Below, piece after piece: positions 7,021 through 40,736 of a stretch of 64,000 nucleotides of DNA. The DNA lies in NCBI GenBank assembly GCA_001899145.1, contig MKVF01000009.1, positions 1 through 64,000 of the forward strand, given 5' to 3'. Source of the stretch: Flavobacteriia bacterium 40-80 (GTDB taxonomy: Bacteria; Bacteroidota; Bacteroidia; Flavobacteriales_D; Crocinitomicaceae). The notes under the pieces are model-generated. The model did no database searches and was not told the DNA's origin. It saw only the letters and a program-made list of their open reading frames with translations. Every line of letters begins with the position of its first letter. The first letter of the stretch is position 1. Both the position numbers and the translations under genes were made by a program.

Positions 7021-7123
7021 TATGATAATAAGTGGTTTCGTAGTAATCGCTTTTGGGAGTGCTAAATTATTCTTTTTTTGAGAAAACTAACAATAACACA
7101 CGGATTTTCCAATCGGGATTGTT

Positions 7124-7131
7124 TAATTTTG
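7124..7131 (+). promoter_or_regulatory. -7 promoter element of the 7152 operon
   Basis: TAATTTTG fits TAnnTTTG and lies 20 bases before the ATG at 7152, implying a leader of about 16 nt for the two-gene unit. Confidence 0.5.
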
Positions 7132-7151
7132 ACACGTTATAATTCTTCATT

Positions 7152-7625
7152 ATGAAAATAAGTCCTTGGGTATCGGTTCCGTTGATCAGCATTATATTGT
7201 TTATCGTCGCCTGGCTTTGTTACCCGCTCTTCGAAAAATTAATTAATTATCAGCTAAACTATTTGCCTCTGACGGTAGTGGAAAAGTCAACTCCTGTAAA
7301 GCTGAGGCTGTTATTTTCCGTTACATTTGCGATCATTCCGTTATTAACAGCAATGGTAAACTTTTTATTTCAGGCAAAAGGAAAATACAATTATTATGTT
7401 TACCTCTCCATGCTGGTATCAATGATTATTTTCAGTCAGTTTCGTGTGTACAGCGTCCGCAAGCTGATTGAAGAAGAACAGGCACGGTTCGGCGAATATA
7501 TCCGCGTTCAGTTTGCGGTAGAGAATCTTCAGATTGTCAGTTTTATGTTTATCGGGACAATGCTCGGTTGTATTGTCGGCGCTCTGTTCCTGAAACGTTT
7601 TCAAAAATTGAATAAACTAAAATAA
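7152..7625 (+). CDS. Small integral membrane protein of unknown function
   Basis: 157 aa with four likely membrane segments: VSVPLISIILFIVAWLCYPL, LLFSVTFAIIPLLTAMVNFLF, YVYLSMLVSMIIFSQF and IVSFMFIGTMLGCIVGALFL. An amphipathic EEEQARFGEYIRVQ stretch lies between the last two, and the C-terminus is basic. I recognise no family. Its stop TAA shares its last A with the ATG of the following MFS transporter (1-base overlap), so the two are translationally coupled and may act together. Confidence 0.8.
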   Translation: MKISPWVSVPLISIILFIVAWLCYPLFEKLINYQLNYLPLTVVEKSTPVKLRLLFSVTFAIIPLLTAMVNFLFQAKGKYNYYVYLSMLVSMIIFSQFRVYSVRKLIEEEQARFGEYIRVQFAVENLQIVSFMFIGTMLGCIVGALFLKRFQKLNKLK

Positions 7626-8821
7626 TGAATCAGACAACCTCTTCTCCCGCTTTAACGGTATATCCTGTCCTATTTGCAATTTGTCTGGCCCATTTTATCA
7701 ATGATCTATTGCAAATCGTGCTGATTTCCAATTTCCCGGAATTTAAAGAGAACTACGCTTTATCGTATGCGCAGATCGGAGCGATAACACTGACATTCCA
7801 GATCACCTCCTCTATTCTTCAGCCGTTTGTAGGTAATTACACAGACAAGCATCCGCAACCCTTTTCTTTCCTGATAGGAATGATATTTACTCTTATCGGG
7901 ATTATTTCCCTGTCATTTGCAGACAGCTATTCCTCCATACTTATTTCAGCAGTTCTGATTGGTTTGGGATCATCTGTTTTTCACCCGGAAGCCTCCAAAT
8001 TATCTTATTATGCGTCCGGAGGACGGAGAGGTCTTGCACAATCCATTTTCCAGATTGGCGGAAATACGGGAACTGCAGTTGGCCCGTTGCTGGTCACAGC
8101 AATTGTACTTTCCAGAGGTCAGCGTTATATCAGCGTATTCGCGATTTTCGCACTGATCGGAATCGCAATTCTGTATTATATCGGGAGATGGTATAAAAAT
8201 TACCTGATCCAGAACGAACGGCAAGTGAAAAAAGCCATGTCAATGGAGCTTCCGCTGCCAAAAAAACAAGTGGTGACAACGTTGATCGTTTTATTGATCC
8301 TGATTTTTTCAAAATACTTTTATACCGCTTCCATTACAAGCTATCTGCATTTGTATCTGATAGAAAAGTATCATTTTGAAGTGGAAACCGCACAGGGCTA
8401 TCTGTTCGTTTATCTTTTCGCGGTAGCTATGGGAACATTTATCGGAGGCCCCATCGGTGATAAGATCGGAAGGAAATATGTTATCTGGATCTCCATATTA
8501 GGAGCAGCACCATTTACCATATTGCTGCCTTTTGCGAGTCCGTTCTGGATGTTAATCCTGCTTGTTCTTATTGGTGTGATCATTTCTTCTGCTTTTTCTG
8601 CAATTTTAGTGTACGCCCAGGAATTGCTGCCGGGAAGAACAGGAATGGTTTCCGGGTTCTTCTTTGGATTTGCCTTCGGTATGGGAGGAATCGGAGCTGC
8701 TTCGTTGGGGAAATTAGCCGACTGGTACGGATTAGAGCAGGTTTTCCACTGGTGCTCTTATTTACCACTGCTCGGAATCTTAGCGATTTACATTCCCAAT
8801 TTGAAAAATGTTAAAAAATAA
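7625..8821 (+). CDS. MFS transporter, fosmidomycin-resistance (Fsr) family
   Basis: 398-aa major facilitator with about 12 membrane segments. The N-terminus (CLAHFINDLLQIVLISNFPEF), the GNYTDKHPQP loop, GLGSSVFHPEASKLSY and GGRRGLAQSIFQIGGNTGTAVGPLL are hallmarks of the Fsr/YfnC efflux group. The second MFS signature is GGPIGDKIGRKY. Family members export fosmidomycin and related small molecules, but the substrate here is unknown. It is coupled to the membrane protein at 7152. Confidence 0.88.
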   Translation: MNQTTSSPALTVYPVLFAICLAHFINDLLQIVLISNFPEFKENYALSYAQIGAITLTFQITSSILQPFVGNYTDKHPQPFSFLIGMIFTLIGIISLSFADSYSSILISAVLIGLGSSVFHPEASKLSYYASGGRRGLAQSIFQIGGNTGTAVGPLLVTAIVLSRGQRYISVFAIFALIGIAILYYIGRWYKNYLIQNERQVKKAMSMELPLPKKQVVTTLIVLLILIFSKYFYTASITSYLHLYLIEKYHFEVETAQGYLFVYLFAVAMGTFIGGPIGDKIGRKYVIWISILGAAPFTILLPFASPFWMLILLVLIGVIISSAFSAILVYAQELLPGRTGMVSGFFFGFAFGMGGIGAASLGKLADWYGLEQVFHWCSYLPLLGILAIYIPNLKNVKK

Positions 8822-9304: not shown

Positions 9305-9751
9305 TCAAGGGTTGTTTACTCTCTGCTTAAATCTTGTATAAAGCCTGAATACACCTTTTTGTATTCTTGACTCTTTCAATATGATTTCAACAATAATTGT
9401 TGCACCGGAATAATTATATGAAACAGGTTTACCATCCCACCCGGGAGCTAATCCTCTTCTTATTTCTAATTCCTTAATTTTCCCCTGAATACCATATCCG
9501 TCTTCATAGGCCGGGATTTCGAAAAAAGGTGTTGAGCTGTCTTTTTCAATAACGGTAAAAAAGGTATTGTAAACGAGAATGCTGTCCAGTCTGTAGCCCG
9601 TGAAATTGACTAGTTGTATTTTAACGGGCGGATAATATGCTTTTGCTATAATAGCCTTTTCTTCTGTTTGCGCGAAAGAAAAAACAGAGCAGAATGCTAA
9701 CGCTGCCGAGAAGATGATTATTAAGAGGAAATGGGATGGACGATTCCCCAT
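9305..9751 (-). CDS. Secreted protein of unknown function
   Basis: 148 aa with a clear signal peptide (MGNRPSHFLLIIIFSAALAF...FSFAQ, cleavage likely after AQ near residue 28). The mature part is beta-rich and has no motif I recognise: PPVKIQLVNFTGYRLDSILVY, GYGIQGKIKELEIRRGLAPG, GATIIVEIILKE. It starts 5 bases after the ZIP transporter stop, so it is the last gene of a three-gene minus-strand run (methyltransferase, ZIP, this). Confidence 0.75.
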   Translation of the reverse strand: MGNRPSHFLLIIIFSAALAFCSVFSFAQTEEKAIIAKAYYPPVKIQLVNFTGYRLDSILVYNTFFTVIEKDSSTPFFEIPAYEDGYGIQGKIKELEIRRGLAPGWDGKPVSYNYSGATIIVEIILKESRIQKGVFRLYTRFKQRVNNP

Positions 9752-9756
9752 AATTG

Positions 9757-10509
9757 TTATAAATTTATAGAGATCGCCAGCATAATTCCAACGAGAATAC
9801 TGATCAGCTTCAACAAATTAAATTTATGATTCTCTGTTGATTCAAAAATGATAGTGGTAGAGATATGAAGGAACATACCGATAACGATGGCCAGAATATT
9901 CTGCATGAGGTACCCGTTGAAGTGTTCCCCGAAAAAGAATCCGAAAAACATTCCCAGCGGTGTCATCAGCGCGAAGATCATTAACACAATCCATGATTTT
10001 AAGCTGGAAAACTCACTGACTTTCAGCAAAGTCATCAAAGCAACCGCTACCGGGATCTGGTGCAGAATAATTCCAAGCAGATAGGATTCCGATGAAAAAT
10101 AAAGGTGATCATGCCCGTGATGAGAAATTTCGCCGGCGGAATTTATTGCAAGGGGAATACCTTCAATAAAGGAATGAATGCTTAGTGACAACAGCATAAC
10201 ATAAGGGAGCTTATTTCCTTTATGTGCGTGTACATGGCCGTGTTCAATACCACCGGAAAAAAATTCCAGCAACAGCTGAATGATAAATCCGAGAATAACG
10301 AATAACCCTATATTGGGAATATGGTTATGATAAAGTTCGGGAAGGAAATGATGGAAGGCTATTGCAAGCAAGAAGCCTCCGCTGAAGGATAGTAACAGCT
10401 TTATGACTTTTGACTGTTTTACAGAAGTAACTTTTGCCAGAATTGTAACAATTAACCCTCCGGTCACAACAGCTAAAATCAGTAAAAGTGTATTTATCCA
10501 GATCTCCAT
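9757..10509 (-). CDS. ZIP family divalent metal transporter
   Basis: Inner-membrane transporter of the ZIP family (zinc, iron or manganese uptake, or release from the cytosol in some groups). There are about eight membrane segments in 250 aa. The metal-site helices are visible: HSFIEGIPLAINSAGE (TM4, His and Glu) and HQIPVAVALMTLL (TM5). Histidine-rich loops occur at GIEHGHVHAHKGNK and SHHGHDHLY, and an early HHFLPELYHNH segment may also bind metal. ATG 10509 is used rather than the TTG six codons upstream, because it sits one base after the methyltransferase stop, an arrangement typical of coupled genes. Confidence 0.9.
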   Translation of the reverse strand: MEIWINTLLLILAVVTGGLIVTILAKVTSVKQSKVIKLLLSFSGGFLLAIAFHHFLPELYHNHIPNIGLFVILGFIIQLLLEFFSGGIEHGHVHAHKGNKLPYVMLLSLSIHSFIEGIPLAINSAGEISHHGHDHLYFSSESYLLGIILHQIPVAVALMTLLKVSEFSSLKSWIVLMIFALMTPLGMFFGFFFGEHFNGYLMQNILAIVIGMFLHISTTIIFESTENHKFNLLKLISILVGIMLAISINL

Positions 10510-29201: not shown

Positions 29202-32200
29202 ATGCGAAAGAACCTTCTTTTATTGCTATCTTTTTTTGCTTCATTTTTTTCAGTTGCCCAAACATTACAACAGGCAGATTCTTTAACAAATACAGGCTTA
29301 TATCGTGATGCCTCCGAGATGTATCAGCAGCTGATGGTAAAAGCAATTGCACAAAATGATGCCGTTAGTTTCTACCAGGCAGCGGACAAGCAGACAGCTG
29401 TATTTTTTGAAGCAGGTTATGAGTTCAAAGAAATCGTGGATTACATCAACCGGTTTCCGGAAATGACTTCTCAGTCACCGGAATTAAAGGCACTTATAAC
29501 TCATTTCCAATTGTTATTTCTGATCAATTTTTATTCAACTGTTTCTGTAGAAGACGAAACAGCGGAACTTCGTTTAAAAATTGACAACAAAAATCACACG
29601 GTGGATTTTGCCAATAAAGCTTACAGGGAAAATCTGCGTAATTATATTGATTCCACAGCCTATTCTTCTATTCAGAAAGCAGAGCTATTCCGAAATGACC
29701 CTGCAAATAAGTTCATTCAGAAGGAGAATATCAATCCGGAAGTTTTTCCTAATTTTTCCATATACCTCCTGGATGAAATCAAAAATTTTGCTTTTGCCAC
29801 AAATCTTTACTCTGAGAAAGTATATACTAAAGTTGAAGATATCCTGAAAGCACAGAAAAATGACAATAGCTATATTATCTGGCATTTGGAAAAATTAATG
29901 TACACTTCAGATAATCAGGACACTACTTTTATCAGAACACTTGAAAAATTCTATAATGAGTATTCTGCCAATAAAAATGCTTTAGGAATTCAGCTGGAAA
30001 TCAACCGGCTTAAGCAATATCAACCTGAAAATCAATACGATTTCAAAACAAATAAAAACCTTCATTTTCAGGAGCAGTCTTATCATCTGATTGATTCTCT
30101 GATAAAAAAATCCCCTGAAAGCTACTACAAAGAAGCGGCTGAAAGGTTCCTTTCTGAAATGAAAAGAACAGGATTTTCCGCACGTATTAACCGTCTGGAC
30201 AACAATCACAAAAAAGCGTTCTTGTCTGTTAATTATAAAAATCTGGAAAAAGTATTCCTGCATATTTATAAGAAAGATAATAAAGGAACACAACAATTCT
30301 CCGGAGAATCTTACTCCGAAGTATATTCGGAAACATTGCAGCTGGAACAAAACGGGAAGTACAATACTCATTCAAAAGCGTTCATCATTCCGGACTTCAT
30401 CTCCGGAGAATACCTTTATCTCCTTGTCAGAGATGACCGGTTCATTGACTCCGTAAAAACGGACCTTTACTTCGATATGAATGATAATGATACAGGATGG
30501 AATTATACTACCGCGGTAATGAAACTCGATGATTTCGGCTATTATTCTTCCACTTATAATGGCAGCATTTATATCAGAACCTTCGATATCATTTCCAACA
30601 AACCCATTCAGGGCATAGAGCTGAAACAAGAGGATAAGGAAGGCCGTTTTCAGACGCTCGCAACAACCGATAAAAATGGCGAATTGACCTATACTTTCCC
30701 TGAAACCACCAATTACAGGTACTACAACAATTTGCAATTAGTAAGAAAAAACAGCTCTCCGCAATTTATTTCCATTTATTCCGGAAAAACAACTACCAGG
30801 CAGGTTGAAAACATCAAAATCATTACCGACCGGAAAATATATCGTCCGGGAGAGCAGGTTTCATTTAAGGCCTACGTTTACAATCAGGAAATCTGGAATG
30901 TGAAGCCGGTAACCGAAACATCTTATACGATCACTGTCAAAGACCTTAACAACAAGGAGCTTTATTCAGGAACAGCAACGACCAACGAATACGGGACATT
31001 AGCCGGAAACTTCACACTTCCTAAATCGGGATTCAGCTTCGGGAGTATCCGTTTATTGGTTGGAGAAAGGGCTTCTTATTTTACAGTAGAAGAATATAAA
31101 CTGCCTGCCATTCAGATTGAAGCTGGATTTGATAAAGCTTCGTATGCCTATTCCGAAAAGCTTCAATTGAAAGGGACTGTCAAAGCTCTTGCAGGATATA
31201 TGATTCCGAATGCCAAAGTTAATCTTTCCATTTCTGAAAGTTCATTTTACTGGAGATATTATGAAAAGGACAGTGCTACGGACACTACTATTTTTACAGA
31301 TGAAAAAGGGCTTTTTCACTTTGAATTTAACGTGGATTCCACTGAACGCTTTGGGAAAAATATCCTGGCAACGATAGAAGTGGTCAGTGAAAACGGGGAG
31401 ATCTTTACTTCTTCCGCAACTACTTTCGCAGGGAAAAAACAGATGGACTGGTCTGTCGAACTGGCGGAAATGTTATATTCTGATCAGCCGAATATTCTGA
31501 AAATAAAATCGGAAGATACAACAGCACGTTTTGAAATTGACATCGTACTGGAAGATTTCCAGAAAAAGGAAATCGTGTATGCTCCGGAATTTGCTGCTTT
31601 CAGTGAAAAACAATTTGAAAAAACATTCGGAAACTGCAGGTACCTGAAAGAATATAAGCCAATCGAACTGAAAACAGTAATAAGTAAAAAGATAACTTCT
31701 AAGGACTCCATCCTGCTAAACGAGCTGATCTCCGAAAGCGGCGATTTCTTTGTGCATGTTAAAAATCTTTCGGATGACGAAGAGAAAGAACTGCGTTTTA
31801 CATTCATCAACATTAAAGAAAAGCAGGCCAAAGTGGCGGATAAGCTTTGGCTGACAGCCGAAAAAGAGGTGCTGGAAATCAATGAGAAATTAAAATATCA
31901 AATCGGAACAAGTGCGAAAAAAATGCCGGTAACGATTTTATTATTCAACGAATCCGGGCTAATCTCAAAACAAGCATTACAGCTAAAAGGAACCAAAGCA
32001 TTTGAATACCAGCCAACAGAAAAGGATTTAACCGGAATTACCGTTCAGGTAACCGGAACGTTGGACGGAGAAGTATTTACAAGAGAAAACAAAATTACTT
32101 TCTCCGGAAACCGTAAGAAATTAGATGTGGAATGGATCACCAGACGTTCTGTTCTGCTCCCCGGTGCAAAAGAAGAATGGCAGTTCGGGCTTAATAATGT

Positions 32201-34793
32201 AACGGAAGCGGAAATGCTCGCTTTGCTGGTCGATCAGGCCAATCTGAGTATGAGCAACAACAATATTGAGTGGAACCCTTATAACAATCGCAGCATTTAT
32301 CTGAGAACGGACAAAAGCGAGCCGGTCAATACATTGGATTTTAATGGATACTACAATAATTATTACTATTTAGATGACGAAACTACCTATTTTCTTCCTA
32401 CGGTTATCAGTAATGATATGGCAGAAACCCCTCCTCCTTCGTCTTTTGCAGACAAAGAAGTCACTTTATCCAGTCAGGAGGCATTTAACGGAACTGGCAA
32501 AAAGAAATTTAAAACAGTCAGCAGCCCTTCTTTCGGAGAAGGAGAAGGAAGTGGAAACGGAACAAATGAACAAACCCCACCTCAGATCCGCAGCAACTTT
32601 AATGAAACCGCTTTTTTCTACCCGCAGCTCCATGCCAAGGATGGGAAAATAAGCTTTAATTTCACCTTGCCGGATGCTGTTACCAGCTGGAATTTTCAGA
32701 CATTCACACATACAAAAGAGTATAAGCTGAATTACTTTACAGCAAGCATTATCGCAAAAAAAGAAGTAATGGTGCAACCTAATGTCCCTCGTTTTTTCCG
32801 GCAGAAGGATAAAATGGAACTGACAGCAAGTACGGTAAATCTCTCCGAAAAAGAAGTATCCGCAACAGCTTCGGTTGAATTTTTCAACCCGGTCACCAAC
32901 GGAATTTTTACAGAAATTCCTGCCCAGACACGAAATTTTAACCTCGCTTCCAATGAAAATAAAATCGTTGGCTGGAATATCGAAATTCCTACAACAGAGC
33001 TTCCTGCGATCGGTATCCGTTATTCAATAAAAGCAGGTACGCATACGGATATTGTGGAGCGTGTAATTGTGGTTTTATCCAATCAGATGACGCTTTCAGA
33101 GGCGGTTCCCTACACATTTAATACTCCCGGAACTCACCTCATGGACGTAAAAGCCCTGACCGGAAAATCAAAAACACAGCAAAACAAGCAATTGACCATT
33201 GAATACCTGGGAATGCCGGAATTATTCGTGCTGAACAGCATTCCAACAATGATGGAAGAACAAAATGAAGACTTTTTTACATTACTGAATAAATATTACA
33301 TCAACGGTATTGCTGAAAAACTGATCGTCCAAAATGCGGATCTGAAGAAACGTGTGAATGATAATTATCAGTGGGAAAGCCCTTATTCCAAATTCAGCGA
33401 CGAAAACATCCGGAATACGCTTCTGGAGGAAACTCCATGGGTTTTGGAGGCAAAAAACGAGCAACAGCAATGGGCGAAGCTCGCAGCATTCTTAAATGAC
33501 AATCAACGTATTCAAAATAAAACCACTAACTGGACAAAATTACAATTGCTGCAAAATTCCGATGGAAGCTTCAGCTGGTTTGCAAAATCAAAAGGATCAG
33601 CCTATCTGACACTGGTGTTTGCAGAGCGTCTGCAGAAACTCGGAGAAACATCCGGTGAGTCTTATAAAAAAGCCATCGCTTATCTGGACAGCGAAGTCGA
33701 TAAACATTATCAACAGTACAAAAAAACAATCGCCGGAGATTATTTTAGTCCTTATCTGATCAAATGGCTGAGAATTACAAACCAGAATTCAGGAGAATCC
33801 TATAAATATTATCTGGAACATTTCAAAACCAACTGGTTAAAATACAATCTGAGCCTGCAGGCGGAAATCGGTTTGCTCATGACAGAAAAAGGAGAAAAAG
33901 CAACTGCGGAAATCATCTGGAAATCCATCGACAACCGAAAATCAGGCAATACAACCCTTGGTACTTACTGGCAAAAACCAAAATACTGGTGGAACTGGTA
34001 TGAGAATTATTTTACAACACATGCAAACATACTGGAACTGTACCAGAAGCTGAACAAGGACAGAGCACAAATTGCCGCTATCCGTCAATGGCTGATTAAT
34101 CAGAAACGCGGTCAGCTATGGGAAACATCCAAAACAACAGCAGACATCTGCCAGGTACTTTTAGTAAACGGAAGAACGTCACGAACTTCTTCCTCCACGC
34201 ATCTTTCAATCGGAGCGGAACAAATTCAGCTGAGTGAAAAACCATTCAGCTATTATAAAACCGTTATCGATCACCCTGCGACAACTTCTCCAAATATAAT
34301 CGTGGAGAAAAAAGACAACGAGCCGGAATTCGCCCAGATTCAGCTGATCTATTCCGATGATATCGCAAATATCACTTCTAACACAGCCGGGTTAAAAATT
34401 GAAAAACGACTTTACCTCGTTGAAAACGGAAAAGAAACAGAGATCACAGGCGGAAAAATAGAAAAATCTTCAAAAATCCGGGTGAAGCTATTCATAAACA
34501 CCGACCGGGATCTGGAATTCGTTTACGTAAAAGACTTGCGCGGACAGGGATTGGAACCGCTGACAGCGCAGAGCGGATATCAGTCATCAGCAACGATGTG
34601 GTATTACCAGACTTCGAAAGATGCGAGCACAGAATTGTTCATCGAACGATTGTCGAAAGGAAATCACCAGGTAAGCTATGATGTGATTGCAACTGTAAAA
34701 GGAACCATCCAGTCAGGGTTCGCGACAGCAGAATGTTTATACGCACCGGAATTTAAAGCAAATACGGATTCAAAAGTGATTCAGGTGGAATAA
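29202..34793 (+). CDS. Alpha-2-macroglobulin family protein lacking the thioester cysteine
   Basis: 1863 aa with signal peptide (LLLLLSFFASFFSVAQ), periplasmic or surface-exposed. Residues ~20-330 are helical, TPR-like. A carboxypeptidase-regulatory-like segment lies near 460 (FDIISNKPIQGIELKQEDKEG). The MG2-type domain begins near 540 (DRKIYRPGEQVSFKAYVYN). The A2M core lies near 1135-1200 (LPDAVTSWNFQTFTHTKEY, IAKKEVMVQPNVPRFFRQKDKM). A thioester-domain-like helical region follows 1340, and a terminal domain ends the protein. Where homologues have C-x-E-Q, this reads MMEEQ at 1350-1354, so the thioester bond cannot form. Bacterial A2Ms are thought to trap proteases. The 3' end has been copied into the tandem duplication downstream. 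Confidence 0.9.
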   Translation: MRKNLLLLLSFFASFFSVAQTLQQADSLTNTGLYRDASEMYQQLMVKAIAQNDAVSFYQAADKQTAVFFEAGYEFKEIVDYINRFPEMTSQSPELKALITHFQLLFLINFYSTVSVEDETAELRLKIDNKNHTVDFANKAYRENLRNYIDSTAYSSIQKAELFRNDPANKFIQKENINPEVFPNFSIYLLDEIKNFAFATNLYSEKVYTKVEDILKAQKNDNSYIIWHLEKLMYTSDNQDTTFIRTLEKFYNEYSANKNALGIQLEINRLKQYQPENQYDFKTNKNLHFQEQSYHLIDSLIKKSPESYYKEAAERFLSEMKRTGFSARINRLDNNHKKAFLSVNYKNLEKVFLHIYKKDNKGTQQFSGESYSEVYSETLQLEQNGKYNTHSKAFIIPDFISGEYLYLLVRDDRFIDSVKTDLYFDMNDNDTGWNYTTAVMKLDDFGYYSSTYNGSIYIRTFDIISNKPIQGIELKQEDKEGRFQTLATTDKNGELTYTFPETTNYRYYNNLQLVRKNSSPQFISIYSGKTTTRQVENIKIITDRKIYRPGEQVSFKAYVYNQEIWNVKPVTETSYTITVKDLNNKELYSGTATTNEYGTLAGNFTLPKSGFSFGSIRLLVGERASYFTVEEYKLPAIQIEAGFDKASYAYSEKLQLKGTVKALAGYMIPNAKVNLSISESSFYWRYYEKDSATDTTIFTDEKGLFHFEFNVDSTERFGKNILATIEVVSENGEIFTSSATTFAGKKQMDWSVELAEMLYSDQPNILKIKSEDTTARFEIDIVLEDFQKKEIVYAPEFAAFSEKQFEKTFGNCRYLKEYKPIELKTVISKKITSKDSILLNELISESGDFFVHVKNLSDDEEKELRFTFINIKEKQAKVADKLWLTAEKEVLEINEKLKYQIGTSAKKMPVTILLFNESGLISKQALQLKGTKAFEYQPTEKDLTGITVQVTGTLDGEVFTRENKITFSGNRKKLDVEWITRRSVLLPGAKEEWQFGLNNVTEAEMLALLVDQANLSMSNNNIEWNPYNNRSIYLRTDKSEPVNTLDFNGYYNNYYYLDDETTYFLPTVISNDMAETPPPSSFADKEVTLSSQEAFNGTGKKKFKTVSSPSFGEGEGSGNGTNEQTPPQIRSNFNETAFFYPQLHAKDGKISFNFTLPDAVTSWNFQTFTHTKEYKLNYFTASIIAKKEVMVQPNVPRFFRQKDKMELTASTVNLSEKEVSATASVEFFNPVTNGIFTEIPAQTRNFNLASNENKIVGWNIEIPTTELPAIGIRYSIKAGTHTDIVERVIVVLSNQMTLSEAVPYTFNTPGTHLMDVKALTGKSKTQQNKQLTIEYLGMPELFVLNSIPTMMEEQNEDFFTLLNKYYINGIAEKLIVQNADLKKRVNDNYQWESPYSKFSDENIRNTLLEETPWVLEAKNEQQQWAKLAAFLNDNQRIQNKTTNWTKLQLLQNSDGSFSWFAKSKGSAYLTLVFAERLQKLGETSGESYKKAIAYLDSEVDKHYQQYKKTIAGDYFSPYLIKWLRITNQNSGESYKYYLEHFKTNWLKYNLSLQAEIGLLMTEKGEKATAEIIWKSIDNRKSGNTTLGTYWQKPKYWWNWYENYFTTHANILELYQKLNKDRAQIAAIRQWLINQKRGQLWETSKTTADICQVLLVNGRTSRTSSSTHLSIGAEQIQLSEKPFSYYKTVIDHPATTSPNIIVEKKDNEPEFAQIQLIYSDDIANITSNTAGLKIEKRLYLVENGKETEITGGKIEKSSKIRVKLFINTDRDLEFVYVKDLRGQGLEPLTAQSGYQSSATMWYYQTSKDASTELFIERLSKGNHQVSYDVIATVKGTIQSGFATAECLYAPEFKANTDSKVIQVE

Positions 34794-34844
34794 TTCCGCT
34801 CAACAGCAATAAAAGTTAACCGGAAAAATTATGCAAGCATATAA

Positions 34845-34915
34845 TTAGGTATTTATACCTAATGAAAAAACAGTATTTATACTCTTGCATGAAACTTGAT
34901 CAAAACCTATATTTA
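34845..34915 (+). promoter_or_regulatory. Operator and promoter of the first duplicated gene pair
   Basis: The palindrome TTAGGTATTTATACCTAA (34845-34862) is perfect with a 2-bp centre. A further half-site GTATTTATAC (34873-34882) runs into TTGC at 34885-34888. After 19 bases comes TATATTTA (34908-34915), a near match to the -7 consensus. The same elements with identical spacing occur upstream of the paralogous pair at 37952-38022, so this is conserved regulatory DNA. The position upstream of and abutting the -33 box suits an activator. Confidence 0.65.
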
Positions 34916-35065
34916 TATATAAATTTTAAACAATAAAATGAGTCATTATGCTGCAAATCAAACATTAAATACCTAGAAACCAAGCCATCACATACACTGA
35001 GAGTAATTGGATAATTTCAGAGTCATAAAAAGCTTTGAAAAACAAAAAGATTAAAATCAATTATT

Positions 35066-35842
35066 ATGAAAAAATTACGTTTAATATTCGTTTTTTTCAT
35101 TGCTGTAAGTGTTGGAGCCCAGACAAAAATCAAAGATGGAAGTGTATCCGGAGGTTCTTTGATCCCTAATGCCAACTCTATTTTAGAGCTGGAAAGCAGC
35201 AATAAAGGGCTATTATTACCTCGTGTAAAGCTGGACAGTACTGGTTTACCCTCACCTCTTTCTTCCCATATAGAAGGAATGACTGTTTACAATATCCGGG
35301 AAACGGCGGATGTATCACCCGGTATGTATTACAATGACGGCAGCAAATGGAGAGCATTGTCCGTACACAAACCTGTGCAGTTTTCAACAGACTCTGTTGT
35401 CAGCCTGAAGGCCGGAGAAAATTTTATTTACTATAAAAAAGATGTACCTCTGAATCCTTCCAGCCCTTTGCTTCGGAATCATTTTTCAGATGTACCTGTA
35501 TTGGAAGGACTTCGACTGGAAACTTTCTATTACGACAATACTTATTATATTCCCAGATGGTATAATGTATCAGGCACTACGCAAAAATACACTTATACTT
35601 CCGTGTCTACTCTCACGAACAATTATGACGAAGCGAACAAGGAACTCCCCGGCGGCGCATTTGAAAATGTAGATGGGGATGGCATCGTTTATTGCAGCCC
35701 TTCCTCTTCTGAAACAGTTACAGCAGACTTACTGATCAATGATAAATGGTACCGGATAATATGGTATGTATTTATTGACAGGAGCATTAATATAAACAAC
35801 ACTGCCTATACCGTACGTATTTCTATTACACGTTTACATTGA
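35066..35842 (+). CDS. Secreted KIKDG-type protein, copy 1
   Basis: 258 aa with signal peptide (LRLIFVFFIAVSVGAQ). The mature N-terminus TKIKDGSVSGGSLIPNANSILELESSNKGLLLPRVKL resembles the opening segment found in many Bacteroidota surface and phage-tail-like proteins, followed by GMTVYNIRETADVSPGMYYNDGSKW. The rest (NHFSDVPVLEGLRLE, YYIPRWYNVSGTT, FENVDGDGIVY, WYRIIWYVFIDRS) is not a family I know. There is no T9SS sorting domain. A same-length paralogue lies at 38164. Followed after 32 bases by its partner T9SS gene, so probably an operon. Confidence 0.8.
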   Translation: MKKLRLIFVFFIAVSVGAQTKIKDGSVSGGSLIPNANSILELESSNKGLLLPRVKLDSTGLPSPLSSHIEGMTVYNIRETADVSPGMYYNDGSKWRALSVHKPVQFSTDSVVSLKAGENFIYYKKDVPLNPSSPLLRNHFSDVPVLEGLRLETFYYDNTYYIPRWYNVSGTTQKYTYTSVSTLTNNYDEANKELPGGAFENVDGDGIVYCSPSSSETVTADLLINDKWYRIIWYVFIDRSININNTAYTVRISITRLH

Positions 35843-35874
35843 ATACAATAACACAGTGCAAATAAAGAGTTGTT

Positions 35875-37431
35875 ATGAATGCTATTTTTAATCTGAAAAA
35901 TATTCCTACCCTGATAACGGGAATCATACTATTAATAACAGGGCCTATACTCAGTCAAACCGGTGCAGGAACAGCTATTACAGCTAACGGTCAGCGGATC
36001 GTAAGCGCTTCCGATACAGTTTTTGAATATGCGGAGACGTTTTATATAGGGCCTGCCGCTCAATGGGAAATAGCAGGAGTACTTGTCATATACAGTAAAA
36101 ATGTCTGGATCGCTCCTTCCGCAAAAATCACAGGCACGGGAAAGCTTATCATTGCAGCACCGGGAAGTAATCCTTTATATACAGGTACAGCTCCCACCAT
36201 TATTGACGGGAATAACGGTAACTATATTACCCTTAATATCGAACATAAAAATCCCGCGAATATTCTCCTTTCAGACATTTCAGATCCGGGTTATAATGTG
36301 GAGAACCCGACCTATGAAAAAGCGGCAGCACTCAATATCGGTGCGGATTTCTCATTTGAAGCTGACGGAGCAGATGTTCTGTTGAACGGCAATGACTTTT
36401 TATTTAATGAAAATGCCACTATCCGCAATTTCAGCGCGCAACGGATGGTTGTTACAAATAATACAGTGAATGGTCATTTGATAAAGCAAAACAGCAATCC
36501 GGAAACATTTGATTTTCCTATAGGGATCGCAGAAGGTGATTATACTCCTGCCTCTATCACCGGAAGCAATACTTATTACGTGAGCGTTACGGATTATTCA
36601 TTTATTGATTCTTTTATCACGGCACCGGAAAAAGGAATGGACAGAGCATGGCATATATACGGCGGAACGGCAAATTCTATGACATTGCAGCATAATTCGT
36701 CCTTAACAGACGGCTCACATTATATTGATGAGAAAGCCTCCATAATACAGCACCTGGGAAACGGCGTATGGAGCAGCTTCACGGCAACGGACTATGTAGC
36801 TTCAGGTGTACATTCCAATACAGCAAACATTCCTTCTGCCATTCCTGACTTTGACAAAGAATCAGCATGGTTCAGCAAAGCAAATAATGTCATTAATCCT
36901 TTGCTTATAGGATTGCTCAATTTCGACGCGTACAGGAAAGATGAAACGATCGAATTACAATGGAGCACGATTACAGAACACAATTGTAAAATATTTGAAA
37001 TCGAACGCAGCAAAGACTGTGAAATATGGAACAAGATCGGATTCAAAGAATCTTTGTCAGGAGGAGAGAACGGGCACCAAAAACTGGATTATACATTTAT
37101 TGATTTGCAACCAATTACCGGATACAATTATTATCGTCTGAAACAGATTGACCAAAACGGGAATTTTACTTACAGCATTATTTGCTCAGCCTTGTTTGAC
37201 AAGCTTATCACCTATCCTTCACCGGTAAAAGATAACCTGTATATTTCAGGGCTTTCAGGAAAAGAAACTATCCATATCCGGAACATGACCGGGAAGCAAA
37301 TCAGGGAAGCCCGTGCGGAAGATTTTACCATCAGCATTAATCTGAACGACCTTAGTGACGGAATATACCATATTGATGTAGTGTCCGATAATGATATCCT
37401 TCTTTCCAGAAAGATAATCATTAATAAATAA
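35875..37431 (+). CDS. T9SS-sorted surface protein, copy 1
   Basis: 518 aa with an N-terminal signal (IPTLITGIILLITGPILSQ). A repetitive beta-rich middle, possibly a beta-helix, includes FEYAETFYIGPAAQWEIAGVLV, VWIAPSAKITGTGKLII, VLLNGNDFLFNENATI and MVVTNNTVNGHLIKQN. A fibronectin-like region common in T9SS cargo follows near 345 (LLNFDAYRKDETIELQWSTITEHNCKIFEIERSKD, YNYYRLKQIDQNG). A type A sorting domain ends the protein (ITYPSPVKDNLYISG...DGIYHIDVVSDNDILLSRKIIIN). Paralogue at 38970. Ends at a hairpin terminator. Confidence 0.85.
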   Translation: MNAIFNLKNIPTLITGIILLITGPILSQTGAGTAITANGQRIVSASDTVFEYAETFYIGPAAQWEIAGVLVIYSKNVWIAPSAKITGTGKLIIAAPGSNPLYTGTAPTIIDGNNGNYITLNIEHKNPANILLSDISDPGYNVENPTYEKAAALNIGADFSFEADGADVLLNGNDFLFNENATIRNFSAQRMVVTNNTVNGHLIKQNSNPETFDFPIGIAEGDYTPASITGSNTYYVSVTDYSFIDSFITAPEKGMDRAWHIYGGTANSMTLQHNSSLTDGSHYIDEKASIIQHLGNGVWSSFTATDYVASGVHSNTANIPSAIPDFDKESAWFSKANNVINPLLIGLLNFDAYRKDETIELQWSTITEHNCKIFEIERSKDCEIWNKIGFKESLSGGENGHQKLDYTFIDLQPITGYNYYRLKQIDQNGNFTYSIICSALFDKLITYPSPVKDNLYISGLSGKETIHIRNMTGKQIREARAEDFTISINLNDLSDGIYHIDVVSDNDILLSRKIIINK

Positions 37432-37458
37432 TTTTCTATCTGTAACAACAAAAACCAG

Positions 37459-37495
37459 AGATCCCGTATATCGATGATTTACGGGATCTTTATTT
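37459..37495 (+). terminator. Terminator of the first duplicated pair
   Basis: A 10-bp stem AGATCCCGTA (37459-37468) with TACGGGATCT (37480-37489) and an 11-nt loop is followed by TTATTT. Confidence 0.75.
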
Positions 37496-37533
37496 ACAAA
37501 CGACCAGCCTTTTCCCAGGAAATTATTTTACAA

Positions 37534-37551
37534 TAAATAAACATTTATTAA
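37534..37551. repeat. 18-bp sequence repeated at the end of each duplication unit, copy 1
   Basis: TAAATAAACATTTATTAA, containing the inverted repeat AATAAA-CA-TTTATT, is identical to 40675-40692. It lies at the right end of each copy of the ~3-kb unit, and weaker similarity continues for about 20 further bases. Confidence 0.75.
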
Positions 37552-37584
37552 TTTAAGAAACTTGTATTTAAACGGAGAAGCCGG

Positions 37585-37820
37585 TACTTTTTTGGAATCG
37601 CTGACCTCACAGAGTGGATACCAGTCATCTGCAGCAATGCGGTATTATAAGACTTCGAAAGATGCGAGTACAGAACTGTTCACGAACGATTACCAAAAGG
37701 AATCATCAAAGCTACGAGGTGATTTCAACAGTAAAAGGAACTATTCAGCCAGAGTTTACAATAGCAGAAATACATATGACTGATTTTAAGCGGAATAAGG
37801 ATTATAAAATAATTAAATAG
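37585..37820 (+). pseudogene. Decayed 3' fragment of the A2M gene
   Basis: The frame at 37562-37783 contains LESLTSQSGYQSSAAMRYYKTSKDASTELF, aligning to the A2M C-terminus at 34550-34640 (LEPLTAQSGYQSSATMWYYQTSKDASTELF). After an indel the other frame continues SYEVISTVKGTIQPEFTIAE, matching SYDVIATVKGTIQSGFATAE of A2M. There is no start, signal peptide or upstream coding region, and at least one frameshift. It is therefore a relic marking the left edge of the second duplication unit, not a gene. Confidence 0.9.
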
Positions 37821-37951
37821 AATAAAATAATCCATCATCATATCCTAATCACATAATGGTACGTTGTGTGATTTAAAATACTTGATTTCTATTTATCTAG
37901 AATCAGCAAATACCTTATTCACTGTATACTTTCTTGCTTCAAATCACAATG
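37821..37951 (+). other. AT-rich spacer between the A2M relic and the second operator
   Basis: No open reading frame of note, no strong hairpin with T-run and no promoter box that I can support. It is longer than the corresponding spacer in copy 1 and contains an imperfect CACATAATGG...TTGTGTG inverted element around 37850-37870. Confidence 0.5.
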
Positions 37952-38022
37952 TTAGGTATAAATACCTGATTTAAAAAGGGTATTTATACTCTTGCCCGGC
38001 TTTAATTTAATTTATAAAATTG
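37952..38022 (+). promoter_or_regulatory. Operator and promoter of the second duplicated gene pair
   Basis: TTAGGTATAAATACCTGA (37952-37969) is a near-perfect palindrome. GTATTTATACTCTTGC at 37980-37995 is identical to copy 1, again exactly 28 bases after the palindrome start. After TTGC and 19 bases comes TAAAATTG (38015-38022), one mismatch from TAnnTTTG. The sequence between these blocks has diverged, so the blocks appear selectively kept. Confidence 0.65.
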
Positions 38023-38163
38023 TTTTAATTAATAATTGCTTTTGAAGATTCCTGAACTGTATCAGTTTAAGAATCTTCAAAATACAGATTAATTGGTGTT
38101 ACAACGATGTTTAGAACAACAAATTTTAAAATAAAGTAAATAATACCCATAAAATCAATTATT

Positions 38164-38940
38164 ATGAAAAAGCTTAGCTTAGCATTTTTTTCTGTTGCTA
38201 TCATAGCATTCAGTATTACAGCACAAACCAAGATCAAGGACGGAACCGTTCCCGGAGGCTCACTGATTCCGAACGCAGATGCCATATTAGAGTTGGAAAG
38301 CAGTAATAAAGGCCTACTCTTACCTCGTGTAGAACTGGACAGTACCGGCTTGCCCTCTCCTCTTTCAAGCCACGTACAGGGAATGACTGTTTATAATACA
38401 AAAAAAACAGCAGACGTATTGCCCGGAATCTATTACAATGACGGGAACAGCTGGAAAAGTTTAATCACAACTAAAGTAATAGTAGACACAGTCGTAATCC
38501 TGAATGTCGGAGAAAGCTTCGTTTATTATAAGAAAGACGTACCTTTAACTGCTGCCAAACCTCTGTTGCGAGATCACTTTTCTGATGTACCTGTATTAGA
38601 AGGGCTCAGGCTGGAAGCATCTTACTATGCTGATCAAAACTTCTATATACCCAGATGGTATAATGTTTCCGGTACTACAAAAAAATACACCTATACCTGT
38701 ATCTCTGGTGCAACAGTCAACTATGATGAGGCTAATCAAACATTATTGAACGGACAATTTGAAAACGTAGATGGAGATAATATTGTCTATGCCAGTGCTA
38801 CCGCTGCTGAAACTGTTACAGTCGATCTGATTATCAATGAGAAGTGGTACCGGGTATTATGGTATGTGTTTAAGGACAGAAGTGTTAATGCAACAAATAA
38901 CAGCCTTACCGTCCGCATTTCCATTACACGTTTACATTAA
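38164..38940 (+). CDS. Secreted KIKDG-type protein, copy 2
   Basis: 258 aa, the same length as the copy at 35066, with long identical runs (LELESSNKGLLLPRV, LDSTGLPSPLSSH, HFSDVPVLEGLRLE, YIPRWYNVSGTT, RISITRLH). The signal peptide (LSLAFFSVAIIAFSITAQ) and the middle region around residues 105-125 have diverged most. No catalytic motif or sorting domain is visible. The ATG follows the same AAAATCAATTATT leader sequence as copy 1. Likely co-transcribed with the T9SS gene 29 bases downstream. Function unknown. Confidence 0.8.
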   Translation: MKKLSLAFFSVAIIAFSITAQTKIKDGTVPGGSLIPNADAILELESSNKGLLLPRVELDSTGLPSPLSSHVQGMTVYNTKKTADVLPGIYYNDGNSWKSLITTKVIVDTVVILNVGESFVYYKKDVPLTAAKPLLRDHFSDVPVLEGLRLEASYYADQNFYIPRWYNVSGTTKKYTYTCISGATVNYDEANQTLLNGQFENVDGDNIVYASATAAETVTVDLIINEKWYRVLWYVFKDRSVNATNNSLTVRISITRLH

Positions 38941-38969
38941 TTGAATATTAATACGTTAAAATCACTTTT

Positions 38970-40535
38970 ATGAATAATTCTATTCTTAATCGGATAAACA
39001 TTCCTGTTTTGATAGTAGTCTTAACATTACTCATAACAGGAACGGGAATCAGTCAGACAGGAGTAGGAACAGCTGTTGTAGACAACAGCCACCGCAGCAT
39101 AAGTTCCGCAGATACTGTCTTTGAATATGTTGAATCTTTTTATATCGGACCGGCTGCTAAATGGGATATCTCAGGAGTACTTGTTTTGTACAGTAAGAGT
39201 GTATGGATCGCCCCCTCAGCAACTATTACGGGAAACGGGAAATTGGTCATTGCATCACCGGGAAGCAATCCTTTGTATACAAGCATGGCAGGCAGCACAA
39301 TCATTGACGGCAACAATGGACAACATATCCTCCTTGATATCCAACATAAAAATCCCGAAAATATTCTTCTGTCAGATGTTGCTGATCCCGGCTATGGCAC
39401 CATTAATCCTTCAGCAGAAAAAGCGGCGGCGCTGAATATCGGAGGAGATTTTTCGTTTGAATCGGACGGCGCTGATGTCCTGTTAAACGGGTATGATTTT
39501 CTATTCGGAGAAAATGCTACACTAAGCAATTACAGCTCACAGCGGATGGTTGTGACGGGAAATACTGTAAATGGTCATTTGATAAAACAAAACAGTATTC
39601 CGGCTGCATTTACCTTCCCTGTAGGAATTGCCGAAGGAGATTATACTCCCGCTTCCATTACAGGAAGTAGTGAGTATCACGTTAGTGTCACCGACTATTC
39701 CTTTATCAATTCGCTGGTTACAGCTCCGGAAGAAGGAATGAACAGGGCATGGCACATATATGGGGGAACGGCTGCTTCTCTGACCTTACAGCATAATACT
39801 CTTTCCAACGGATTATCTTATGTTGATGCAGATGCTTTTATAACACAGCATCAGAGTAGTGGTGTATGGAGCAACATACCTTCTGCAGATTATGTATCCT
39901 CAGGAGTACACTCTAATACAACCACAATTCCCTCTGCTATTCCTCCTACATCCACGCCCTCTTCATGGTTCAGTAAATCAAATGATGTAGCCAGTCCACT
40001 TCCTATCGGACTGCTGACTTTCAATGCAGAAAAACAGGGAAGAACCGTTGAACTAAAGTGGATCACTGTCACTGAGCACAATAACAACTTGTTTGAAATT
40101 GAAAGAAGTGAAGATGGAAAAACATGGGATAATATAGGAAAAAAAGCTTCTTTGTCAGGAGGATCAGACGGACATCAGCAATTAAATTATAATTTTTTTG
40201 ATTTAAAGCCAGTCATCGGATATAATTATTACCGCTTAAAACAAGTTGACTACGACGGAAAATACTCTTATAGTCCTGTACGTTCCGTCTTATTTAATGA
40301 ACTTGTTATCTATCCTGTTCCAACAAAAGATTTTCTCCATATTTCAGGTCTTTCAGGAAAGGAAATTATTCGTATCCGGGATCTTACCGGAAGAGAGATA
40401 AAGAGCATGAGCAACACTAGTTCTACGATAACTACCAATATCAATCTGAATGATCTTAGTGATGGAATATATTACATTGACATATTCTCTGACAATACGA
40501 TCGTTTTGTCACAAAAAATAATGGTTACTAAATAA
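38970..40535 (+). CDS. T9SS-sorted surface protein, copy 2
   Basis: 521 aa, paralogue of the 518-aa product at 35875 and collinear with it throughout: signal segment (IPVLIVVLTLLITGTGISQ), beta-rich middle (VWIAPSATITGNGKLVIASPGSNPLYT, ADVLLNGYDFLFGENATL), fibronectin-like block (LPIGLLTFNAEKQGRTVELKWITVTEHNNNLFEIERSEDG) and type A sorting domain (YPVPTKDFLHISGLSGKEIIRIRDLTGREI...DGIYYIDIFSDNTIVLSQKIMV). Both copies are intact, so the pair has probably been kept by selection. Ligand unknown. Confidence 0.85.
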   Translation: MNNSILNRINIPVLIVVLTLLITGTGISQTGVGTAVVDNSHRSISSADTVFEYVESFYIGPAAKWDISGVLVLYSKSVWIAPSATITGNGKLVIASPGSNPLYTSMAGSTIIDGNNGQHILLDIQHKNPENILLSDVADPGYGTINPSAEKAAALNIGGDFSFESDGADVLLNGYDFLFGENATLSNYSSQRMVVTGNTVNGHLIKQNSIPAAFTFPVGIAEGDYTPASITGSSEYHVSVTDYSFINSLVTAPEEGMNRAWHIYGGTAASLTLQHNTLSNGLSYVDADAFITQHQSSGVWSNIPSADYVSSGVHSNTTTIPSAIPPTSTPSSWFSKSNDVASPLPIGLLTFNAEKQGRTVELKWITVTEHNNNLFEIERSEDGKTWDNIGKKASLSGGSDGHQQLNYNFFDLKPVIGYNYYRLKQVDYDGKYSYSPVRSVLFNELVIYPVPTKDFLHISGLSGKEIIRIRDLTGREIKSMSNTSSTITTNINLNDLSDGIYYIDIFSDNTIVLSQKIMVTK

Positions 40536-40579
40536 TAAACGTTTTCTACTCAAAAACAACAAATCAAGAACAAATGTAC

Positions 40580-40614
40580 AACCCCGAAAGCAATGATTTT
40601 CGGGGTTTGCTTTT
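40580..40614 (+). terminator. Terminator of the second duplicated pair
   Basis: A 10-bp stem AACCCCGAAA (40580-40589) with TTTCGGGGTT (40598-40607) is followed by TGCTTTT. The sequence is unrelated to the copy 1 terminator although its position is equivalent. Confidence 0.75.
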
Positions 40615-40674
40615 AAACAATAAAAACTCTTCTGTCCCTTAAATTCAGCATTATCATCAACAATATTTCCTGAT

Positions 40675-40692
40675 TAAATAAACATTTATTAA
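40675..40692. repeat. 18-bp sequence repeated at the end of each duplication unit, copy 2
   Basis: TAAATAAACATTTATTAA, identical to 37534-37551; it marks the approximate right edge of the second unit. Confidence 0.75.
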
Positions 40693-40722
40693 CTTGATAA
40701 GTTTGTGTTCGGATAGTGAAGC

Positions 40723-40736
40723 GTATAATTTTATAC
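40723..40736. promoter_or_regulatory. Palindrome upstream of the 3-hydroxyacyl-CoA dehydrogenase gene
   Basis: GTATAATTTTATAC is a perfect 6-2-6 inverted repeat, 77 bases before the ATG. TAACTTTA at 40793-40800 could be the -7 element. The GTAT...ATAC ends loosely recall the operator at 34845, but the spacing differs. Confidence 0.3.

What the first reader, a model, noticed from the sequence alone, without database searches (positions are those of the whole stretch)
34540..40712. Tandem duplication of a secreted-protein pair that carried along the 3' end of the A2M gene
Seen directly: the 258-aa and ~520-aa genes at 35066/35875 recur in the same order and lengths at 38164/38970. A decayed copy of the last ~80 codons of the A2M gene (frameshifted) sits at 37585-37820 exactly where the second unit begins, and the same 18-bp AT palindrome ends each unit (37534, 40675). 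The unit was therefore roughly 3 kb: A2M 3' end, operator, secreted protein, T9SS protein. Both protein pairs remained open while the A2M fragment decayed, so the pair rather than A2M was kept. The two proteins may form a secreted two-component surface module.
Basis: seen in the sequence. Interest (0 to 1): 0.7.

Follow-up and report, generated by a model that had tools for sequence, protein, structure and literature searches.

The report
Duplicated secreted gene pair, shared operator
A bacterium of the Bacteroidota carries two diverged side-by-side copies of a complete two-gene unit for secreted surface proteins; both copies keep the same DNA control element, which elsewhere in the genome stands before an injection machine, toxin-like genes and a sensor-regulator pair, so the duplication is real but ordinary and the shared control element is the interesting part.

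Summary
The duplication is real. A1/B1 (35066-37431) and A2/B2 (38164-40535) are paralogous pairs (71% and 66% amino-acid identity) in head-to-tail units, 34551-37591 and 37592-40732. Each unit holds a 3' piece of the A2M gene, a tandem-palindrome operator, A, B and a terminator hairpin. Three additions. (1) Dating does not fit 'A2M fragment decaying since the pairs split': A/B synonymous sites are saturated (dS 1.7-1.9), whereas the fragment has dS 0.73 and omega 0.13, so it diverged mostly as working coding sequence. Either unit 2 came from a diverged relative, or a whole second A2M was lost late. (2) A-B is a conserved module: loci fetched with A alone carry a B homologue downstream in Pedobacter and Siphonobacter. 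(3) The operator (two GTATTTATAC palindromes, 23-24 bp pitch) survives in otherwise unalignable DNA and has 12 genomic sites against 0 in the control. Strict sites stand beside the dispersed eCIS_core gene, TcA-like, phospholipase/peptidase and lysine-oxidase genes and two kinase/LuxR-regulator operons; a looser site precedes the contractile-injection (eCIS) operon. The pair is thus predicted to belong to an antagonism regulon. What A and B do is unproven; a surface adhesin or fibre module is my best guess.

The parts
29202..34793 (+). A2M gene (bacterial alpha-2-macroglobulin, 1863 aa); its last 81 codons are the left end of unit 1
   Evidence: Pfam bMG10, A2M, MG2, A2M_BRD
34551..37591 (+). 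unit 1 of the tandem array (3041 bp)
   Evidence: limits of similarity to unit 2
34845..34888 (.). operator 1: two GTATTTATAC palindromes, 24-bp pitch
   Evidence: conserved between units above shuffles; 12 genomic sites of the type, 0 in control
35066..35842 (+). A1, 258-aa secreted protein
   Evidence: 71% identical to A2; signal-peptide-like N-terminus by eye
35875..37431 (+). B1, 518-aa T9SS cargo
   Evidence: PF18962 E 2.9e-11
37457..37491 (+). terminator-like hairpin of unit 1
   Evidence: -19.3 kcal/mol, z -5.6
37534..37551 (.). 18-bp AT element, copy 1
   Evidence: identical to 40675-40692; no other exact copy in the genome
37592..40732 (+). unit 2 of the tandem array (3141 bp)
   Evidence: limits of similarity to unit 1
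37592..37825 (+). A2M 3' remnant, frameshifted
   Evidence: 83% identity over 178 nt; coding-like divergence
37952..37995 (.). operator 2
   Evidence: 84% identical to operator 1
38164..38940 (+). A2, 258-aa secreted protein
38970..40535 (+). B2, 521-aa T9SS cargo
   Evidence: PF18962 E 4.2e-12
40580..40607 (+). terminator-like hairpin of unit 2 (different stem sequence, corresponding place)
   Evidence: z -4.0
40675..40692 (.). 18-bp AT element, copy 2

Best explanation
The locus holds two diverged copies of one complete transcription unit: operator, A, B, terminator. A is a protein with an export signal; B is a type IX secretion cargo carried to or through the outer membrane. Together they form a two-gene surface module (inferred: B the anchored beta-rich scaffold, A the exposed or binding subunit). 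Shown: the duplication, purifying selection on both pairs, A-B linkage in other genera, operator conservation. Inferred: a LuxR-type response regulator, encoded with a kinase beside the eCIS locus and itself preceded by the same operator, switches on both pairs together with the eCIS and several scattered toxin-like and lytic proteins, so the module is deployed during antagonism or contact with other cells. Unit 2 probably carries the 3' end of an A2M gene that was still working after the two units had separated, either because it came from a diverged relative's same locus or because a larger A2M-A-B duplication lost its second A2M late.
For: Paralogous pairs at constant spacing; dN/dS about 0.12 for both genes; hairpins at both unit ends; B relatives downstream of A in seven loci fetched with A alone and A-type domains beside B in loci fetched with B; operator conserved where surrounding DNA is randomised; 12 operator sites against 0 in control; both eCIS_core genes of the genome lie in operator-bearing units; kinase/GerE operons preceded by the operator; coding-like divergence of the A2M remnant.
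Against: The eCIS promoter's own site is a loose match (16 sites against 7 in control at that tolerance). Some operator genes are not obvious weapons (DUF6088, HSDR_N). A-B loci of other genera lack the operator. The adhesin role rests on context: A's model is poor and B's N-domain has no significant structural match. The A2M dating rests on 57-72 codons.
Confidence: 0.62

Rival explanations
1. Simple in-place tandem duplication of a 3-kb segment with one breakpoint inside A2M, followed by neutral decay of the A2M piece while the pairs were kept.
For: Clean head-to-tail layout and a single junction near 37591/37592; similar base composition of both units.
Against: The A2M piece has omega 0.13 and lower synonymous divergence than A/B (P = 0.004-0.009); an untranslated piece as old as the A/B split should be near saturation.
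Confidence: 0.15
2. Unit 2 was imported from a diverged relative's same locus (homology at one end, illegitimate joining at the other), so the pairs are xenologues rather than paralogues of a local duplication.
For: Explains coding-like divergence of the A2M piece and its recent frameshifts, and different depths of divergence of A2M and A/B if the pair's alleles are older.
Against: No donor known: no close relative of A or B in any searched collection; GC of both units is the same as the genome.
Confidence: 0.4
3. A whole A2M-A-B unit (about 8.6 kb) was duplicated, both A2M genes worked for long and were kept similar by conversion, and the second A2M was later deleted except for its 3' end.
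For: Explains omega and the lower dS of the A2M piece; junction position fits a later deletion.
Against: Needs an extra deletion; no trace of the 5' part of a second A2M in the genome.
Confidence: 0.35
4. The tandem palindrome is the site of some general regulator unrelated to antagonism, and its presence beside eCIS and toxin-like genes is incidental.
For: Some targets are not weapons (DUF6088, HSDR_N, 488-aa protein); related genomes have sparse sites near other kinds of genes.
Against: Both eCIS_core genes, two TcA-like ORFs, Tle1-like phospholipases, peptidoglycan hydrolases and LodA lie beside such sites, as do two kinase/GerE operons, one of them next to the eCIS locus.
Confidence: 0.3

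Closest known systems
Type IX secretion cargo with type A sorting domain (PF18962 / TIGR04183)
   Same: B1 and B2 end in the domain above the curated cut-off.
   Different: The 310-residue N-domain of B is not in Pfam, NCBIfam or PDB sequence searches; Pedobacter relatives end differently, at least one in what looks by eye like a type B sorting domain.
GerE (LuxR-type) regulators beside eCIS loci (Geller et al. 2021, PMC8213781)
   Same: A kinase plus GerE response-regulator operon lies beside the eCIS operon, and eCIS_core (DUF4157) proteins are present.
   Different: Here a candidate operator and a dispersed regulon are seen, including T9SS cargo and the A-B pairs; the passages of that paper that I read describe regulators adjacent to eCIS operons only.
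Pedobacter/Siphonobacter A-B neighbourhoods (uncharacterised)
   Same: A-type N-terminal domain gene followed within one or two genes by a B relative; in Siphonobacter aquaeclarae directly adjacent and full length.
   Different: Pedobacter A proteins are much longer and often have collagen-like repeats; no operator of this type in those loci.

Membership tests
Simple tandem segmental duplication | Head-to-tail copies with a junction joining the right end of one to the left end of the next | tested here: met
   Units 34551-37591 and 37592-40732
Simple tandem segmental duplication | All parts of the unit equally old, with an orphaned gene piece decaying neutrally | tested here: not met
   A2M piece dS 0.73, omega 0.13; A/B dS 1.7-1.9
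T9SS type A cargo (B) | C-terminal sorting domain above cut-off | tested here: met
   43.9 and 46.6 bits, cut-off 27
T9SS type A cargo (B) | Export through the outer membrane by T9SS | not testable with these tools
   Needs proteomics with and without T9SS
Conserved A-B gene module | Linkage of both genes outside this genome | tested here: met
   Seven of 43 loci fetched with A; L177 and L178 among five B regions
Conserved A-B gene module | Physical interaction of A and B | not testable with these tools
   No complex prediction or binding data
eCIS-linked GerE regulon | Kinase/GerE operon beside the eCIS locus, with the operator in front of it | tested here: met
   L055 8609-11169
eCIS-linked GerE regulon | Operator in front of the eCIS operon | tested here: inconclusive
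   Site 93 bp before the Pvc16_N gene, but with 3 mismatches to the strict pattern
eCIS-linked GerE regulon | Regulator binds the operator and controls A/B | not testable with these tools
   Needs DNA-binding and expression data

The most novel reading that the evidence does not exclude
A kinase/LuxR-type regulator pair beside an eCIS locus controls, through a tandem-palindrome operator, a genome-wide antagonism regulon that couples the contractile injection system with type IX-secreted proteins, among them a duplicated and diversified A-B surface module that helps the cell hold or recognise its target.
Probability: 0.4. Interest if true: 0.72.

Novelty: new variant of a known kind. Interest (0 to 1): 0.52.

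Why it matters
The duplication itself is ordinary. Because its two copies have diverged to saturation, it acts as a natural footprint that exposes one conserved 44-nt operator, and that operator leads to a predicted regulon joining eCIS, toxin-like proteins and T9SS cargo in one species. GerE regulators are known to sit beside eCIS loci; a candidate operator makes their target genes directly testable. The A-B linkage also defines an uncharacterised secreted protein family spread over several genera of Bacteroidota.

Tried and rejected
Neutral decay of the A2M remnant since the pair split, and gene conversion onto an already truncated remnant, were judged unlikely from codon-position and omega tests. 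The empty-site test failed: none of the A2M relatives has the downstream dehydrogenase gene next to A2M within the DNA held, and no other genome of the genus was among the relatives. A genome-contig scan with B found nothing; B relatives in named genomes came only through A neighbourhoods. The 18-bp AT element as a genome-wide repeat was rejected. Structure: A model poor; B N-domain model moderate (pTM 0.66) without significant PDB match; no PDB sequence relatives. Plasmid records gave only weak or sorting-domain-level matches to B. The operator in related genomes is sparse and mostly at 22-bp pitch, near other kinds of genes. Two literature searches for an eCIS operator or regulon in Bacteroidota found none.

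Full report
Observation. The window is the start of contig C9 of a 3.52-Mb, 32-contig genome, the only one of its genus among the relatives searched. It contains two copies of a gene pair. A1 (35066-35842) and A2 (38164-38940) are 258 aa each and 71% identical; B1 (35875-37431) and B2 (38970-40535) are 518 and 521 aa and 66% identical. Ungapped direct repeats lie at 3095-3107 bp spacing across both genes. A remnant of the last 81 codons of the A2M gene lies at 37592-37825 and matches 34551-34793 (83% over the best 178 nt) with frame-breaking indels. An 18-bp AT element is identical at 37534 and 40675. The limits of similarity define units 34551-37591 and 37592-40732; the exact right end of each unit is soft, because the 40 nt after the AT element are not above shuffles in local alignment.

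Unit anatomy. Each unit is a complete transcription unit: a 44-nt operator-like tandem palindrome, A, B about 30 bp later, and a strong hairpin followed by a T-rich stretch (37457-37491, z -5.6; about 40580-40607, z -4.0). The two hairpins sit at corresponding places but have different stem sequences. In the DNA upstream of A only the operator and the last nucleotides before the ATG remain alignable: the operator alignment scores 53 against a maximum of 38 in 1000 dinucleotide shuffles, and with these pieces removed similarity falls to shuffle level (P = 0.31). The operator was therefore conserved while its surroundings were randomised.

Selection and age. A and B have dN 0.21 and 0.23 with saturated synonymous sites (dS 1.74 and 1.94, NG86; fourfold identity 35/74 and 59/143), so dN/dS is about 0.12: both pairs are under purifying selection. 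The A2M remnant differs. Its differences by codon position are 10, 2 and 18 in 57 codons; dN 0.097, dS 0.73, omega 0.13 (bootstrap 0.04-0.31; extended to the stop codon 0.07-0.40). Had it been untranslated since the split, omega between the remnant and the constrained A2M gene should be near 0.5 (inference: one neutral and one constrained branch), and its synonymous divergence should not be lower than that of A/B; resampling gives P = 0.004-0.009 for the latter. The remnant therefore diverged mainly as part of a working A2M gene and was frameshifted later. That fits import of unit 2 from a diverged relative's same locus, or a larger duplication whose second A2M was lost late. Base composition does not distinguish the units (GC 0.398-0.405). 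No second intact A2M exists, and synteny outside the genus is not kept, so the choice stays open. The caveat is the small remnant.

A conserved module. A has no Pfam, NCBIfam or PHROG match. Its first 95 or so residues belong to a domain common in Pedobacter and other Bacteroidota, often at the head of long collagen-repeat proteins; the C-terminal half has almost no relatives. B ends in a T9SS type A sorting domain (PF18962, E 3e-11 and 4e-12). Of the 43 loci fetched with A alone, many of which end soon after the match, seven carry a B homologue downstream on the same strand: six Pedobacter loci (40-50% identity over the N-domain) and Siphonobacter aquaeclarae, where A is followed directly by a nearly full-length B relative. 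In the reverse direction, B homologues are rare (9 of 295 class genomes including this one, several weak), and of five B regions examined, L177 and L178 have an A-type domain within about 3 kb of B and L180 has one on the same strand several kb upstream. A third, distant A-B pair in the same order lies on contig C18 (L051: A3 7219-8082, B3 5641-7185, minus strand). This supports a functional two-gene module. Whether the products bind each other is untested.

The operator and its predicted regulon. The pattern GTAWNNWTRC-N12-15-GYAWNNWTAC has 12 sites in this genome and 0 for the reversed control; among 149 genomes searched no other shows more than 5. The genes beside the strict sites are: A1-B1 and A2-B2; an eCIS_core (PF13699) protein; two TcA-like ORFs (one with TcB-binding and ABC-toxin domains, the other running off a contig end with a similar N-terminus); a PG_binding/Peptidase_M15 protein followed by a Tle1-like phospholipase; L-lysine epsilon-oxidase (LodA) divergent from a histidine kinase/GerE response-regulator operon, with two operators between them; a second kinase/GerE operon; a DUF7379 protein; a DUF6088 protein; and an HSDR_N protein. 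Looser sites precede the eCIS operon (Pvc16_N, sheath and further genes), a 488-aa lipoprotein-like gene, a Tle1-like gene divergent from a T9SS-tailed amidase, and a 577-aa protein. The eCIS operon, the 488-aa gene and the DUF7379 gene all begin 92-93 bp from the start of the motif. The genome has exactly two eCIS_core genes, one in the eCIS operon and one dispersed with a strict operator. Geller et al. 2021 (PMC8213781) report GerE regulators beside 25.8% of eCIS loci, 9% of those with a kinase gene upstream, which agrees with this layout. The weak points are the eCIS promoter's own site (3 mismatches to the first pattern, where 16 sites stand against 7 in the control) and the lack of any binding or expression data.

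Mechanism, with the status of each step. Shown by sequence: duplicated operator-A-B-terminator units, selection on both pairs, sorting domain on B, conserved operator, operator at the eCIS-linked regulator genes. Inferred: the GerE-type regulator binds the tandem palindromes and acts on the pairs together with the eCIS and toxin-like genes; A and B form a surface adhesin, fibre or recognition module; divergence of the copies gives two variants of that module. The AlphaFold model of B's N-domain is all-beta with moderate confidence (pTM 0.66) and has no significant PDB match; the A model is unreliable, so the adhesin reading rests on the company these genes keep.

Verdict. The finding is real and the duplication is ordinary. 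The most useful outcome is the operator and the predicted antagonism regulon that includes this pair.

Noticed in passing
L123 8060-19001, L165 and the start of L055 (G000 contig C16, about 68-96 kb): A complete-looking eCIS operon (Pvc16_N, sheath, tube-like, further structural genes, an eCIS_core protein) with a kinase/GerE operon a few kb downstream.
   Followed up: partly
L120 1-1348 (start of contig C6) and L124 1-9319 (contig C18): Two TcA-like ORFs with similar N-termini, each preceded by a strict tandem-palindrome operator about 330 bp upstream; the L124 one has TcB-binding and ABC-toxin domains.
   Followed up: partly
L052 about 9432-9856: The leader between an operator-like site and a 577-aa gene seems to hold a decayed start of a gene resembling the N-terminus of the TcA-like ORFs; it was not read further.
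   Followed up: no
L126 7815-12376 (contig C22): A Tle1-like phospholipase gene divergent from a 981-aa Amidase_2/CUB protein with a T9SS sorting domain, with a loose operator between them.
   Followed up: partly
L051 5641-8082 (contig C18): A third, distant A-B pair without the operator; its A protein has collagen-like repeats.
   Followed up: partly
window 37534-37551 and 40675-40692: The 18-bp AT element is fully conserved between the units although the DNA on both sides has diverged; its role is unknown.
   Followed up: partly
L156-L164 (G033, G004, G037, G039, G113, G008): Related genomes have sparse GTATTTATAC tandem palindromes, mostly at 22-bp pitch, some before secreted proteins or near response-regulator genes (L158, L160), which suggests a wider family of such operators.
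   Followed up: partly
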